A DNA stretch of 64,000 nucleotides. It comes from Pseudomonas frederiksbergensis (lineage in GTDB: Bacteria; Pseudomonadota; Gammaproteobacteria; Pseudomonadales; Pseudomonadaceae). The notes below the pieces were generated by a model. That model was not told the origin of the DNA and did not search any database. It saw nothing but the letters and a program-made list of their open reading frames with translations. The position numbers and the translations under genes were made by a program. Numbering within the stretch: position 1 is the stretch's first letter; the number at the start of each line of letters is the position of its first letter. The stretch covers positions 2,976,001-3,040,000 of the forward strand of contig NZ_CP017886.1 in the NCBI RefSeq assembly GCF_001874645.1, read 5' to 3'. Shown piece after piece: positions 78 through 44,894 of this stretch.

Positions 78-86
78 TTATCCACA
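78..86 (+). promoter_or_regulatory. Isolated perfect DnaA box
   Basis: TTATCCACA matches the strict DnaA 9-mer. It lies between the Zur-like site and the first gene. A single box may occur by chance or may tie the promoter to DnaA; nothing else here decides. Confidence 0.4.
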
Positions 87-17222: not shown

Positions 17223-18194
17223 ATGTTGCAGAACATTCCCACTCACGTCATTGCCGGACCGTTAGGCGCCGGCAAGACCAGCCTGATCCAGCATCTGCTG
17301 ACGCAGCGGCCGGCGAACGAGCGCTGGGCGGTGCTGATCAACGAGTTCGGCCAGATCGGTCTCGACGCCGCGCTGTTGACCACCGGCGCCGATGGTATCG
17401 CACTGGGTGAAGTGGCTGGCGGCTGTTTGTGTTGCGTTAATGGTGCGCCGTTTCAGATCGGCCTCGGGCGGTTGCTGCGCAAATCACGGCCGGATCGCTT
17501 GTTTATCGAACCCTCGGGGCTGGGGCATCCGGCGCAACTACTCAAGCAATTAAGCGAAGCGCCGTGGCAGGGGGTGCTGGCGATTCAGCCAAGCGTTCTA
17601 GTGCTCGACGCGCAAGCACTCGCTGCCGGAAAACCACTGCCAGAAGCGCAACAGCAAGCGCTACCGAGCGCCGGTCTGTTGCTGTTGAACAAGGCCGAGC
17701 AACTGAACGACGAACAGCGCCAGCGCATCACTGCGCAATTGCCAGAATGCCCGCTGTATTGGACGCAGCAGGGCACTCTGGCGTTGAGTGACTTGCCGGG
17801 CGTGCACAGTCGATCGGTTGAGGGTGTGGATAACTTCAGTGTGCCAAAAGGTCTGGCGCAAATGCCGGCAGTCTGGACTGATCCGACGCAGCCGATTTGC
17901 CTGAGCCAGCAGCAGGAAGGTGGCTGGAGCATCGGTTGGCGTTGGTATCCGGGACAGTCGTTCGACCTTTCACTGATCCAGGCCTACCTGGAGGCGCTGG
18001 AGTGGCGCCGGGCCAAGCTGGTTATCCACAGCGCCGAGGGGTGGGTTTCGGCCAATTCGCTGGATAACGCTGCGCTGCACTGGCAACCCAGTGAATGGCG
18101 CCAGGATTCGCGCATCGAGCTTATTTTCGATAAGCCACAGGATGCCGAATCACTACAGAGGAAACTCGCGAGTTGCCGGGTGAACCTGATTTAA
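17223..18194 (+). CDS. Second CobW/COG0523 GTPase
   Basis: 323 residues. P-loop AGPLGAGKTSLIQ (about 10-22), metal motif GGCLCCVNG (about 70), NKAEQ as the G4-like motif and a shorter C-terminal CobW domain (from about 235). It is shorter than, and divergent from, the paralogue at 14988 and probably serves another client. Its start is 27 bp from the divergent secreted-protein gene, so its promoter must lie in or across that gene; I see no Zur palindrome there. Two perfect DnaA boxes lie in its 3' part (17825 and 18022). Confidence 0.85.
   Translation: MLQNIPTHVIAGPLGAGKTSLIQHLLTQRPANERWAVLINEFGQIGLDAALLTTGADGIALGEVAGGCLCCVNGAPFQIGLGRLLRKSRPDRLFIEPSGLGHPAQLLKQLSEAPWQGVLAIQPSVLVLDAQALAAGKPLPEAQQQALPSAGLLLLNKAEQLNDEQRQRITAQLPECPLYWTQQGTLALSDLPGVHSRSVEGVDNFSVPKGLAQMPAVWTDPTQPICLSQQQEGGWSIGWRWYPGQSFDLSLIQAYLEALEWRRAKLVIHSAEGWVSANSLDNAALHWQPSEWRQDSRIELIFDKPQDAESLQRKLASCRVNLI
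17825..17833 (-). promoter_or_regulatory. Perfect DnaA box inside the second cobW gene
   Basis: TGTGGATAA on the plus strand, that is TTATCCACA on the minus strand, within codons of the GTPase gene. It is 189 bp from an opposite-strand box at 18022. Significance alone is doubtful. Confidence 0.35.
18022..18030 (+). promoter_or_regulatory. Perfect DnaA box inside the second cobW gene
   Basis: TTATCCACA within the coding sequence, inverted relative to the box at 17825. Confidence 0.35.
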
Positions 18195-42180: not shown

Positions 42181-42627
42181 TTAAAGGCCTTTGCGAAACT
42201 GAATGAAGCCGGGGCGTTCGGCGATGCGCTCGTAGAGCTGGATCGCGGTGGCGTTGGTTTCATGGGTCAGCCAATGAACCTTGCAGCAACCGTCGGCCTT
42301 GGCCGTGGCGTAGACGAATTCGATCAGCTTGCGGCCGACACCGGTGCCGCGGGTTTCGGGCGTCACCAGCAGGTCTTGCAGGTAGCAGGAGTTTTCGATG
42401 CTCCAGTTCGAGCGGTGATAGATGAAATGCACCATGCCCACCGCTTTGCCATCGGCCCAGGCGAGGGCGGCGTGGGTCGGCTCGCTCGGGTCGAGGAAAC
42501 GTTGCCAGGTGCTGTGGCTGACGGCCTCTGGCAGCTCGGTGTTGTAGAAGCGCAGGTAGGCTTGCCACAACGGCAGCCACGCTGCGTGGTCGTCGGCGGT
42601 AACGCGGCGAATCTCGATCTGACTCAT
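42181..42627 (-). CDS. GNAT N-acetyltransferase
   Basis: 148 residues from the ATG at 42627 (MSQIEIRRVTADDHAAWLPLWQAY). The acetyl-CoA loop is LQDLLVTPETRGTGVGRKLIEFVYATAKADGCCKVHWLTHETNATAIQLYERIAERPGFIQF, typical of polyamine/diamine acetyltransferase-like GNATs. It begins 2 bp after the PaiB-like gene, suggesting coupled translation. Confidence 0.9.
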   Translation of the reverse strand: MSQIEIRRVTADDHAAWLPLWQAYLRFYNTELPEAVSHSTWQRFLDPSEPTHAALAWADGKAVGMVHFIYHRSNWSIENSCYLQDLLVTPETRGTGVGRKLIEFVYATAKADGCCKVHWLTHETNATAIQLYERIAERPGFIQFRKGL

Positions 42628-42629
42628 GA

Positions 42630-43259
42630 TCATTCCTTTGGCATCAAGTGGGCGAGGGCCTGGTCGCGCAGGTCGGGGCTGGCAGTCAGCCCTTCGCGCA
42701 CGCCGGCGATATCTGCGGTACTGCGGTTCTGACTGAGCTTGCGCTTGCCTTCCAGGCGCTGGATGGGCAGGGCGAAGCCGACGATGGCCTTGAGCATGCC
42801 ATCGATGTAATGGGCTGGCGCATCGTCGACTTTCCACGGCTTGGCGCGGCTGGCTTCATGGCGATCGGTCAGGGCGCTGACCAGGTTGCGCAGGCGATGA
42901 GCGTCGCTGAACACTTCGGCGCTGCCATAGACGTGCACCGCCACGTAGTTCCAGGTCGGCACGACTTTGCCGTGGTCAGCTTTGCTGGGGTAGAACGACG
43001 GGCTGACGTAAGCATCGGCGCCGGCAAAAATCACCAACGCTTCGGCACCGGCTTCCAGTTCCTGCCATTGTGGATTGGCCCGGGCCAAGTGCCCATAAAG
43101 GGTCCCGTTAGGGCCTTGTTCCGGGCTTAGCAGCAGCGGCACATGGCTGGCCTGCAAGCCTTGTTCGCCATGGGTGACCAGCACGGCCAGGCGAGTGTCG
43201 AGGATCTGCTGATGCAGGGCGGGAAGGTCTTCGATGGCAAATGCGCTGGGGGTATACAT
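42630..43259 (-). CDS. FMN-binding negative regulator, PaiB type
   Basis: 209 residues from the ATG at 43259 (AAGGAAAA upstream). It shows the PaiB pattern: MYTPSAFAIEDLPALHQQI, PLLLSPEQGPNGTLYGHLARANPQW, and SPSFYPSKADHGKVVPTWNYVAVHVYGSAEV. PaiB proteins have a flavin-reductase-like fold and sit beside acetyltransferases (pai operon of Bacillus), as here. Divergent from the MocR regulator across 90 bp; the group is probably MocR-controlled. Confidence 0.87.
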   Translation of the reverse strand: MYTPSAFAIEDLPALHQQILDTRLAVLVTHGEQGLQASHVPLLLSPEQGPNGTLYGHLARANPQWQELEAGAEALVIFAGADAYVSPSFYPSKADHGKVVPTWNYVAVHVYGSAEVFSDAHRLRNLVSALTDRHEASRAKPWKVDDAPAHYIDGMLKAIVGFALPIQRLEGKRKLSQNRSTADIAGVREGLTASPDLRDQALAHLMPKE

Positions 43260-43349: not shown

Positions 43350-44894
43350 ATGAGCAATCCGTCGCTGTCCTTGTCATTCAACCCGGCCGGTATCGAACTC
43401 GATCGTCGTCAGGGCTTGAGCCGTCAGCTCTACCAGGCATTGCGTGTGCGCGTACTCGACGGTCGTCTGGCCAGCGGCACGCGCTTGCCAGCCAGTCGCG
43501 ATCTGGCAGCAGCGTTGTCGATTTCCCGCAATAGCGTGGTCCGTGCCTACGACCAACTCTACGCCGAAGGTTTCATCGAAGGGCGGGTCGGTGATGGCAC
43601 TTACGTGGCGCAATTGCCACCCACCGTGCTGCCCACGAAAAAACTATCCACAAAAGTATCCACAGGGTTTTCAACAGGCTTACCCACAGGGTTATCCACA
43701 AATTGGCTGGATTTACCTGTGGTTACATCCAGTAAAGTTATCCACAGAGGTGCTCTGGAGCGGGTCGAGAAGCATCATTTGGCCAGGCCGCCGAGTGGTC
43801 CGCCGAGGGCTTTTCGGGTGGGTGTGCCGGCCTTCGATCTGTTCCCGTTCGAGGTTTGGGCCAAGCTGAATGCGGCTTTCTGGCGAAAACCGGATTTACA
43901 GCAGCTGTGTTACGGCGCGCCCGAAGGTGACGAGCGTTTGCGCGGGTTGATCGCGGCCTATTTGCGCAGTTCACGCGGCATGCAGTGCAGCGCTGAGCAA
44001 ATTGTGATCACCAGTGGCGCACAGCAGGGGATTAGCCTTTGTGCACAGCTGCTGGTGGAGCCCGGCGATGGGGTGGCTGTGGAAAACCCCGGCTATCGCG
44101 CGGCCGGGCATGCCTTCGCCGTGGCCGGGGCGCGTTTGCATGGGGTTTCGGTGGACAGCGACGGCATCGACTGCGCCGAACTGGCGGAATTGAGCGACTG
44201 CCGATTGGCTTATGTCACGCCGTCTCATCAGTATCCGACCGGAGTCATCATGAGCCTGGCCCGGCGTCTGGAGTTGCTCGCCTGGGCCGAGCGCACTGAC
44301 GGCTGGATCATCGAGGACGACTACGACGGCGAGTACCGCTACAGCGGCGCACCGTTGGCGCCCTTGGCGGCGTTGGATCGACAGGGTCGGGTGCTTTACG
44401 TCGGCACCTTCGGTAAAGTCGCGTTTCCGGCGTTGCGTCTGGGCTATCTGGTGTTGCCGATGGGCCTGGTAGAGGCGTTTGCCCAGCGTCGCGCGGTGGA
44501 CGTGCGCCATTCCGAGGTAGGCACTCAGGCGGTGATGGCCGAGTTCATGGCCGCCGGGCACTTTCAGCGGCATATCCGCCGTATGCGGCGTGCGGCGTTG
44601 AGTCGCCGCAACACCTTGTTGGCCGGCTGGCCTGTGGATATCCCCGGCGTTGGCAGCCTGCCGAATGTCGCGGCGGGGCTGCACTTGACGGTGGCGGTCG
44701 ACACACAGGCCCGAGAACGTGAATTGATCGAAGCCGCCGCCAGCGTTGATGTCGAGATCAATGGCCTGAGCAGTTATTGGCTGCCGGAATCGAGCATCCC
44801 GCTGGATCAGCGCGCCGGCCTGGTGCTGGGGTTCGCGGCGGTGCCCGAGGAGGCGATCCGCGCAGCGCTCGGGCGGTTGAAAAAGGTCTGGTGA
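43350..44894 (+). CDS. MocR-family transcriptional regulator with DnaA-box repeat linker
   Basis: 514 residues. GntR-type winged helix (about 15-85, GLSRQLYQALRVRVLDGRLASGTRLPASRDLAAALSISRNSVVRAYDQLYAEGFIEGRVGDGTYVA), a linker, then a fold-type I aminotransferase domain (about 150-510) with the PLP Lys in GTFGKVAFPALRLGY (about 356). The linker residues 99-118 are a four-residue repeat of the form [LVF]-[SP]-T-[KGN], encoded by the 12-bp DnaA-box array. MocR proteins bind PLP or amino compounds and control a divergent gene, here the PaiB/GNAT group. Confidence 0.9.
   Translation: MSNPSLSLSFNPAGIELDRRQGLSRQLYQALRVRVLDGRLASGTRLPASRDLAAALSISRNSVVRAYDQLYAEGFIEGRVGDGTYVAQLPPTVLPTKKLSTKVSTGFSTGLPTGLSTNWLDLPVVTSSKVIHRGALERVEKHHLARPPSGPPRAFRVGVPAFDLFPFEVWAKLNAAFWRKPDLQQLCYGAPEGDERLRGLIAAYLRSSRGMQCSAEQIVITSGAQQGISLCAQLLVEPGDGVAVENPGYRAAGHAFAVAGARLHGVSVDSDGIDCAELAELSDCRLAYVTPSHQYPTGVIMSLARRLELLAWAERTDGWIIEDDYDGEYRYSGAPLAPLAALDRQGRVLYVGTFGKVAFPALRLGYLVLPMGLVEAFAQRRAVDVRHSEVGTQAVMAEFMAAGHFQRHIRRMRRAALSRRNTLLAGWPVDIPGVGSLPNVAAGLHLTVAVDTQARERELIEAAASVDVEINGLSSYWLPESSIPLDQRAGLVLGFAAVPEEAIRAALGRLKKVW
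43644..43746 (+). other. DnaA-box array inside the MocR gene
   Basis: Nine-mers starting at 43644 (CTATCCACA), 43656 (GTATCCACA), 43668 (TTTTCAACA), 43680 (TTACCCACA) and 43692 (TTATCCACA, perfect) are exactly 12 bp apart and in one orientation. A sixth box, TTATCCACA, is at 43738. The in-phase spacing keeps the reading frame (four codons per unit) and puts the boxes on nearly the same DNA face. It looks like a datA/DARS-type DnaA-binding cluster or an iteron array; function inferred. Confidence 0.6.

What the first reader, a model, noticed from the sequence alone, without database searches (positions are those of the whole stretch)
43644..43746. DnaA-box array with 12-bp period hidden in the linker of a MocR regulator
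Five DnaA-box-like 9-mers start exactly every 12 bp in one direction (43644, 43656, 43668, 43680, 43692), and a sixth perfect TTATCCACA is at 43738. The period equals four codons, so the protein carries a tandem four-residue repeat in the linker between its DNA-binding and aminotransferase domains. Linkers tolerate sequence drift, so keeping five boxes suggests selection on DNA. The array could titrate or reload DnaA (datA/DARS role) or tie the regulator to replication.
Basis: partly seen in the sequence, partly recalled or inferred. Interest (0 to 1): 0.78.

Follow-up and report, generated by a model that had tools for sequence, protein, structure and literature searches.

The report
DnaA-binding array hidden inside a gene
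Many Pseudomonas species carry a row of evenly spaced binding sites for the replication starter protein DnaA inside an unrelated regulator gene near the replication origin; evolution preserves the DNA letters rather than the protein, so the row probably helps control how often the chromosome is copied.

Summary
Five DnaA-box-like 9-mers lie exactly 12 bp apart, with a sixth, perfect box 46 bp further on, inside a MocR-type gene. They are selected as DNA. In 46 array-bearing sequences, synonymous variation in box codons is 0.23 of expectation and in box 6 0.16, against 0.77 in spacer codons; 0 of 20,000 random codon sets is as low. Box 6 keeps the 9-mer in another reading frame. Two sister species lack mocR and paiB but keep a five-site, 12-bp array alone. 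The three-box pattern occurs in 316 of 398 genomes of the genus, and in 113 genomes of other genera only as two chance-like hits. In 45 genomes it lies 49-158 kb from dnaA. Here it edges a 130-kb oriC zone holding 37 of the genome's 137 exact DnaA boxes. Best explanation: an early-replicated cis site that binds a DnaA oligomer and limits free DnaA after initiation. DNA selection is near certain; that function, and DnaA binding itself, are inferred. No datA-type IHF site was found. New variant of a known kind.

The parts
43644..43652 (+). DnaA box 1, CTATCCACA (codons Leu-Ser-Thr)
   Evidence: at most 1 mismatch in 39 of 46 array-bearing sequences
43656..43664 (+). DnaA box 2, GTATCCACA (Val-Ser-Thr)
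   Evidence: at most 1 mismatch in 40 of 46
43668..43676 (+). weak DnaA box 3, TTTTCAACA (Phe-Ser-Thr), two mismatches
   Evidence: least conserved of boxes 1-5, at most 2 mismatches in 29 of 46
43680..43688 (+). DnaA box 4, TTACCCACA (Leu-Pro-Thr)
   Evidence: at most 1 mismatch in 45 of 46
43692..43700 (+). DnaA box 5, perfect TTATCCACA (Leu-Ser-Thr)
   Evidence: perfect in 44 of 46
43738..43746 (+). DnaA box 6, perfect TTATCCACA, read in another frame (Val-Ile-His)
   Evidence: perfect in 29 and at most 1 mismatch in 33 of 46, unrecognisable in 13
43350..44894 (+). host gene: MocR-type regulator (GntR DNA-binding domain plus aminotransferase class I/II domain), 514 aa
42630..43337 (-). divergent neighbour with FMN_bind_2 domain (PaiB-like); absent together with mocR from the locus in G043 and G249
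42181..42630 (-). GNAT acetyltransferase; still beside the array in G043 and G249
78..86 (+). exact DnaA box of the oriC-flanking field
17825..17833 (-). exact DnaA box of the oriC-flanking field
18022..18030 (+). exact DnaA box of the oriC-flanking field

Best explanation
This is a cis-acting DnaA-binding locus that uses the variable linker of mocR as its host. Shown here: the 9-mers, their 12-bp spacing and the sixth box are conserved as DNA across much of the genus, and a five-site array is present in two species that lack the host gene. Inferred: DnaA binds the perfect boxes 5 and 6 tightly and fills the weaker co-oriented boxes 1-4 cooperatively, one protomer per 12 bp. Because the site lies about 50-160 kb from oriC it is duplicated soon after initiation. 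Together with the other boxes around oriC it then takes up free (probably ATP-bound) DnaA and damps re-initiation, a titration role. Whether the bound oligomer also speeds ATP hydrolysis is open.
For: Synonymous O/E: box codons 0.225, box 6 0.164, spacer codons 0.77; 0 of 20,000 random 15-codon sets as low. Codons in the linker of 46 sequences: Leu TTA 62% vs 3% elsewhere in the gene, Thr ACA 85% vs 8%. Box 6 conserved in another frame. G043 and G249 lack mocR yet keep five sites at exactly 12 bp; they nest among array-bearing species in a GNAT tree (support values not printed). Pattern in 316 of 398 genus genomes; reversed control in 16 of 398 by my count of the rows. 45 of 45 measured genomes: 49-158 kb from dnaA. 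37 of 137 exact boxes of this genome lie in 130 kb around oriC; boxes are also concentrated near oriC in G190 and G268. DnaA of this genome carries GGRDHTTVLHACRKI (its role in box reading is recalled). P. putida's high-affinity box is TTATCCACA (PMC4285127, passages). Box enrichment and titration near oriC are reported for E. coli (PMC12371093, abstract and section 6).
Against: No DnaA-binding or replication data for this locus. Proximity to oriC may be inherited with mocR through gene order. Relatives L020, G129 and G274 lack the array and live on. Of 22 genomes without mocR, 20 lack the three-box pattern too. Box 3 is weakly kept and box 6 is gone in 13 of 46. oriC of this genome does not use 12-bp head-to-tail spacing. 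Between G043 and G249 the array is no better conserved (52 of 57) than the 200 bp downstream (178 of 200).
Confidence: 0.6

Rival explanations
1. DnaA bound at the array works as a transcription factor or roadblock, regulating mocR from inside the gene or the divergent paiB-GNAT genes, so that the regulon follows the replication cycle.
For: The array is about 300 bp inside mocR and a similar distance from the paiB start. In G043 the array lies just upstream of GNAT: 19 bp from the first ATG of its ORF, about 75 bp from the later ATG that matches the start in this window. DnaA is a known transcription factor (start of abstract of PMC8203912 in the search listing).
Against: In G043 and G249 mocR and paiB are gone from the locus and the array stays. 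The array is part of a wide box field around oriC rather than an isolated promoter site.
Confidence: 0.2
2. The array is a DnaA nucleotide-exchange or hydrolysis site in the strict sense (DARS or datA equivalent), with helper proteins acting on the bound oligomer.
For: Six DnaA boxes in 103 bp, conserved across species, position near oriC kept.
Against: No IHF consensus within -300 to +400 bp in 46 sequences (strict consensus only). All boxes point the same way, unlike the paired DARS core (recalled).
Confidence: 0.12
3. Selection acts on the protein: the linker needs the tetrapeptide repeat (x-Ser-Thr-Gly), and the boxes follow from it.
For: Ser and Thr are nearly invariant at boxes 1, 2 and 5 in 46 array-bearing sequences.
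Against: At boxes 3 and 4 the residues vary. Synonymous sites are conserved mainly in box codons, rare codons are used, box 6 is kept in another frame, and the array is present without the gene in two species. Back-translation never gives the array (0 of 20,000 draws above two boxes).
Confidence: 0.03
4. A different protein that reads a TTATCCACA-like motif, for instance a nucleoid or segregation factor, is the real ligand.
For: No binding experiment has been done, and the sites lie in the origin region.
Against: The 9-mer is the E. coli and P. putida DnaA box (PMC4285127, passages), the same 9-mer clusters before dnaA in this genome, and DnaA has the expected motif.
Confidence: 0.05

Closest known systems
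oriC-proximal DnaA-box clusters (DBCs) of Bacillus subtilis (Okumura et al. 2012; paper not held; described in PMC5295017, passages)
   Same: Clusters of DnaA boxes outside the origin; removing all six caused early initiation, read as loss of sites that hold DnaA.
   Different: Here one dense, co-oriented, 12-bp-phased array lies inside a protein gene in a different phylum; its effect on initiation is untested.
datA of Escherichia coli (PMC4585315 and PMC5295017, passages)
   Same: A DnaA-box cluster outside oriC, conserved in sequence and in relative distance from oriC.
   Different: datA is a non-coding region of about 1 kb that depends on an IHF site; no IHF consensus was found here.
DARS1 and DARS2 of Escherichia coli (PMC4585315, PMC5295017, passages)
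   Same: Conserved DnaA boxes at a conserved place relative to oriC.
   Different: Box orientation differs (DARS layout recalled); Fis and IHF dependence not shown; nucleotide exchange not testable here.
oriC-centred enrichment of DnaA boxes in E. coli, proposed to titrate DnaA (PMC12371093, abstract and section 6)
   Same: Boxes concentrated near the origin and so duplicated early.
   Different: In E. coli it is a broad density rise, counted mainly in 10-centisome windows with wider motifs; here 37 of 137 exact boxes sit in about 2% of the genome, with a structured array at one edge.

Membership tests
datA | several DnaA boxes outside oriC, conserved across strains | tested here: met
datA | IHF site between DnaA boxes, needed for function | tested here: not met
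   0 strict-consensus IHF sites within -300 to +400 bp in 46 sequences; looser sites not tested
datA | non-coding locus | tested here: not met
   inside the mocR ORF; outside mocR only in G043 and G249
datA | promotes hydrolysis of DnaA-bound ATP | not testable with these tools
   needs biochemistry
DARS | core of boxes in opposed orientation with Fis and IHF sites (layout recalled) | tested here: not met
   all six boxes on the + strand; IHF consensus not found; Fis sites not tested
DARS | releases ADP from DnaA | not testable with these tools
   needs biochemistry
oriC-proximal DnaA-box cluster (B. subtilis DBC type) | dense group of DnaA boxes outside oriC | tested here: met
   five boxes at most 1 mismatch within 103 bp
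oriC-proximal DnaA-box cluster (B. subtilis DBC type) | close to oriC | tested here: met
   94 kb here; 49-158 kb in 45 genomes
oriC-proximal DnaA-box cluster (B. subtilis DBC type) | bound by DnaA in vivo and delays initiation | not testable with these tools
   no binding or timing data seen in the listings
MocR-type regulator (host gene) | GntR DNA-binding domain joined to an aminotransferase domain | tested here: met
   PF00392 and PF00155 above their cut-offs

The most novel reading that the evidence does not exclude
Pseudomonas has its own dedicated replication-control element, unrelated to datA and DARS: an evenly phased, one-directional DnaA array at the rim of a box field around oriC, that grew inside the coding sequence of a non-replication gene. 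It assembles an ordered DnaA oligomer right after initiation and prevents re-initiation, with the gene as a mere host that can be lost while the element stays.
Probability: 0.4. Interest if true: 0.82.

Novelty: new variant of a known kind. Interest (0 to 1): 0.7.

Why it matters
The searches made here (open-access papers only, listings capped) showed no study of DnaA-box clusters outside oriC in Pseudomonas. A genus-wide element whose DNA is conserved through a protein gene gives a precise and easily mutated target for asking how these bacteria restrain initiation: synonymous recoding removes the boxes without touching the protein, and two natural species show the element without the gene. 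It is also a clean case of a coding sequence hosting an unrelated chromosomal control site, and it warns against reading such linkers as protein motifs.

Tried and rejected
Protein-repeat explanation: rejected by synonymous conservation, frame change of box 6, and presence without the gene. Slippage repeat without function: rejected, because copies differ while box positions stay and because 12-bp spacing is found outside mocR. datA-like IHF site: searched by strict consensus, none found. Continued selection after gene loss judged from G043 against G249: inconclusive, the array is not better conserved than its downstream flank. Whether array-less species hold a substitute: in G041 the 400 kb around mocR gave no dnaA hit and only three exact boxes, so mocR is not near oriC there; one genome only. 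The strict label regex in the tree marks L031-L034, L060 and L211 as lacking the array although searches show boxes there; the labels were not used for counts, and L030 is missing from that tree. Rfam found nothing in L122 or L140 at E <= 0.1. The paper on B. subtilis clusters (PMC3245932) is not held. Papers: only search listings, except PMC12371093 (abstract, section 6) and PMC4585315, PMC4285127 and PMC5295017 (passages). An earlier count said 46 of 54 orthologues; the right figure is 45 of 54 plus the window.

Full report
Observation. The window (contig C1:2976001-3040000 of a 6.12-Mb genome; closest named orthologue Pseudomonas fluorescens FW300-N2E3, 94% protein identity) holds CTATCCACA, GTATCCACA, TTTTCAACA, TTACCCACA and TTATCCACA at 43644, 43656, 43668, 43680 and 43692, and TTATCCACA at 43738. 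At up to one mismatch the window has 18 matches against 6.56 expected; the third site has two mismatches. The host ORF 43350-44894 has a GntR domain and an aminotransferase domain, and the array sits between them. The stretch 43640-43746 is 41% G+C against 62% for the gene.

Is it selected as DNA? I took the 54 closest loci (L009-L062 of the 79) plus the window. Two of them bear other genus names in their record titles (L036 Paucimonas MAG, L045 Pantoea sp. Cy-639). 45 of the 54, and the window, hold ATCCACA in the linker (46 of 55); the nine without are L020, L048, L049, L053, L054, L055, L057, L058 and L061. Choosing the 46 by presence of one such core favours box conservation slightly; adding L020 changes the result little (0.225 to 0.238). 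Among the 46, pairs sharing an amino acid differ in codon at box codons only 0.225 as often as the same amino acids do outside the linker; spacer codons give 0.77, box 6 gives 0.164, flanks 1.05 and 1.08. 0 of 20,000 random 15-codon sets and 0 of 438 contiguous 19-codon windows outside the linker are as low. Per box: 0.40, 0.16, 0.52, 0.15, 0.03. No tree was used, but the comparison is within the same sequence pairs. Codon choice: Leu TTA 62% inside and 3% outside, Thr ACA 85% and 8%, Lys AAA 95% and 36%. In this window boxes 1-5 read x-Ser/Pro-Thr in frame; box 6 reads Val-Ile-His in another frame and is perfect in 29 of 46, gone in 13. Back-translating the linker with local codon usage never gave more than two boxes in 20,000 draws; five are present.

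Distribution. The three-box pattern (boxes 1, 2 and 5, up to one mismatch) occurs in 316 of 398 genomes of the genus, the reversed control in 16 of 398 by my count of the rows. A pair of boxes 12 bp apart at up to one mismatch occurs in 346 of 398, at several different loci. The 316 include non-array matches (G082 for one, L145), so it is somewhat too high; on the other side, genomes without a hit can hold variant arrays with the same 12-bp and 46-bp spacing (L174-L178, L187). The place list is cut; for 62 genomes listed in both I compared places: 62 of 62 hits lie in mocR, in frame, 267-297 bases after the first matched codon. mocR is found in 376 of 398 (E <= 1e-90). One search covered 115 genomes: this one, one other of the genus (no hit) and 113 of other genera, of which 2 have a hit; neither looks like DnaA boxes.

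The element without its gene. Of the 22 genomes without a mocR match (20 listed, two inferred by exclusion: G333, G397), 20 lack the three-box pattern and two have it: G043 and G249. They are sister species (93% identity over 3.06 kb). Beside the GNAT gene, and before a membrane-protein gene that looks YeeE/YedE-like (by eye, not searched), stands TTATCCACA-CAA-GTATCCACA-GGG-TTATACCCA-AGG-TTACACACA-GGT-TTATCCACA in G043, and a near copy in G249; sites 3 and 4 of G043 have two mismatches. In translated comparison with the window the only match at this place is a 66-base stretch covering the array; short weak matches are scattered elsewhere, and the printed list was cut. A GNAT protein tree (midpoint root, support not printed, about 150 residues) places both inside the array-bearing group, so the gene was most likely lost around an existing array. 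The 12-bp spacing is kept although no known gene's frame enforces it. No box 6 was seen at +46 there. The array is not better conserved between the two species than the flank (52 of 57 against 178 of 200), so selection after the loss is not shown.

Place on the chromosome. dnaA lies at C1:2923907 and the box-rich region before it, taken as oriC, at C1:2924958-2925230: the array is 94 kb away, on the side of rpmH (recognised by eye). In 45 array-bearing genomes in which array and dnaA share a contig (my choice, 45 of 316) the distance is 49-158 kb, median 90 kb. The array points away from oriC in 45 of 45 by my reading, including G125, where it lies on the other side of dnaA. In G043 and G249 it is 54 kb. 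This genome has 137 exact TTATCCACA against 23 for the reversed 9-mer; 37 lie between 2889210 and 3019746 (bounds chosen by eye), none in the 184 kb before or the 127 kb after. The array is the outer edge of that field. In G190 26 exact boxes lie within 60 kb of oriC on the array side and 15 within 40 kb on the other, with 0 in 120 kb of control stretches; in G268 22 lie within 20 kb of oriC on both sides, others in patches to 100 kb, with 1 in 120 kb of controls. Gene-order conservation alone could keep mocR near oriC.

Mechanism. Shown: conserved DNA element, phasing, early-replicated position. From established knowledge: TTATCCACA is the high-affinity DnaA box of E. coli and P. putida (PMC4285127, passages), and the DnaA of this genome has the expected motif (role recalled). 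Inferred: cooperative loading of DnaA from the perfect boxes onto weaker co-oriented ones, and titration of DnaA after initiation. The rival that DnaA regulates mocR or its neighbours stays possible, partly because in G043 the array lies just upstream of GNAT. A datA role is unlikely in the strict sense (no IHF consensus).

Known or new. Box clusters that hold DnaA are a known kind (B. subtilis clusters, PMC5295017, passages; E. coli, PMC12371093, abstract and section 6). New here, as far as searches show (open-access library, capped listings), are the coding-sequence host, the 12-bp phasing, the genus-wide conservation, and presence of the element without the gene.

Noticed in passing
genome C1:2281387-2281870 (L122:2388-2873, L001; relative L120 in G344): Second conserved DnaA-box element in intergenic DNA between an HflK-like and a LivF-like gene (named by eye), about 640 kb from oriC: six boxes at most one mismatch, including a 12-bp pair; blocks around the boxes are sharply conserved against G344 in otherwise diverged DNA. 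The same pair is listed in 17 other genomes. No Rfam match. Candidate datA- or DARS-like locus.
   Followed up: partly
genome C1:2889210-3019746; G190 and G268 origin regions (L214-L227, L234-L247): Exact DnaA boxes are about 17-fold denser in the 130 kb around oriC of this genome than in the rest (37 of 137) and are concentrated near oriC in two other species.
   Followed up: partly
L007 (C1:2898992), L093, L097, L101: 12-bp-spaced DnaA-box pair just before a DprA-like gene (named by eye), about 26 kb from oriC on the side opposite mocR in this genome, recurring in other species.
   Followed up: no
L004, L091, L110: 12-bp-spaced box pair near a Maf-like and a YceD-like gene (named by eye), recurring in other species.
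   Followed up: no
L020, L172 (G129), L173 (G274): Close relatives without the array, with the tetrapeptide repeat replaced while mocR stayed intact; natural loss strains.
   Followed up: partly
L140:1654-1662 and the matching place in L211: A TTGTTCACA site in a fully conserved stretch downstream of the stand-alone array in G043 and G249.
   Followed up: no
L277-L296 (G041): In this array-less genome the 400 kb around mocR hold no dnaA hit and only three exact DnaA boxes, so mocR is not near the origin there.
   Followed up: no
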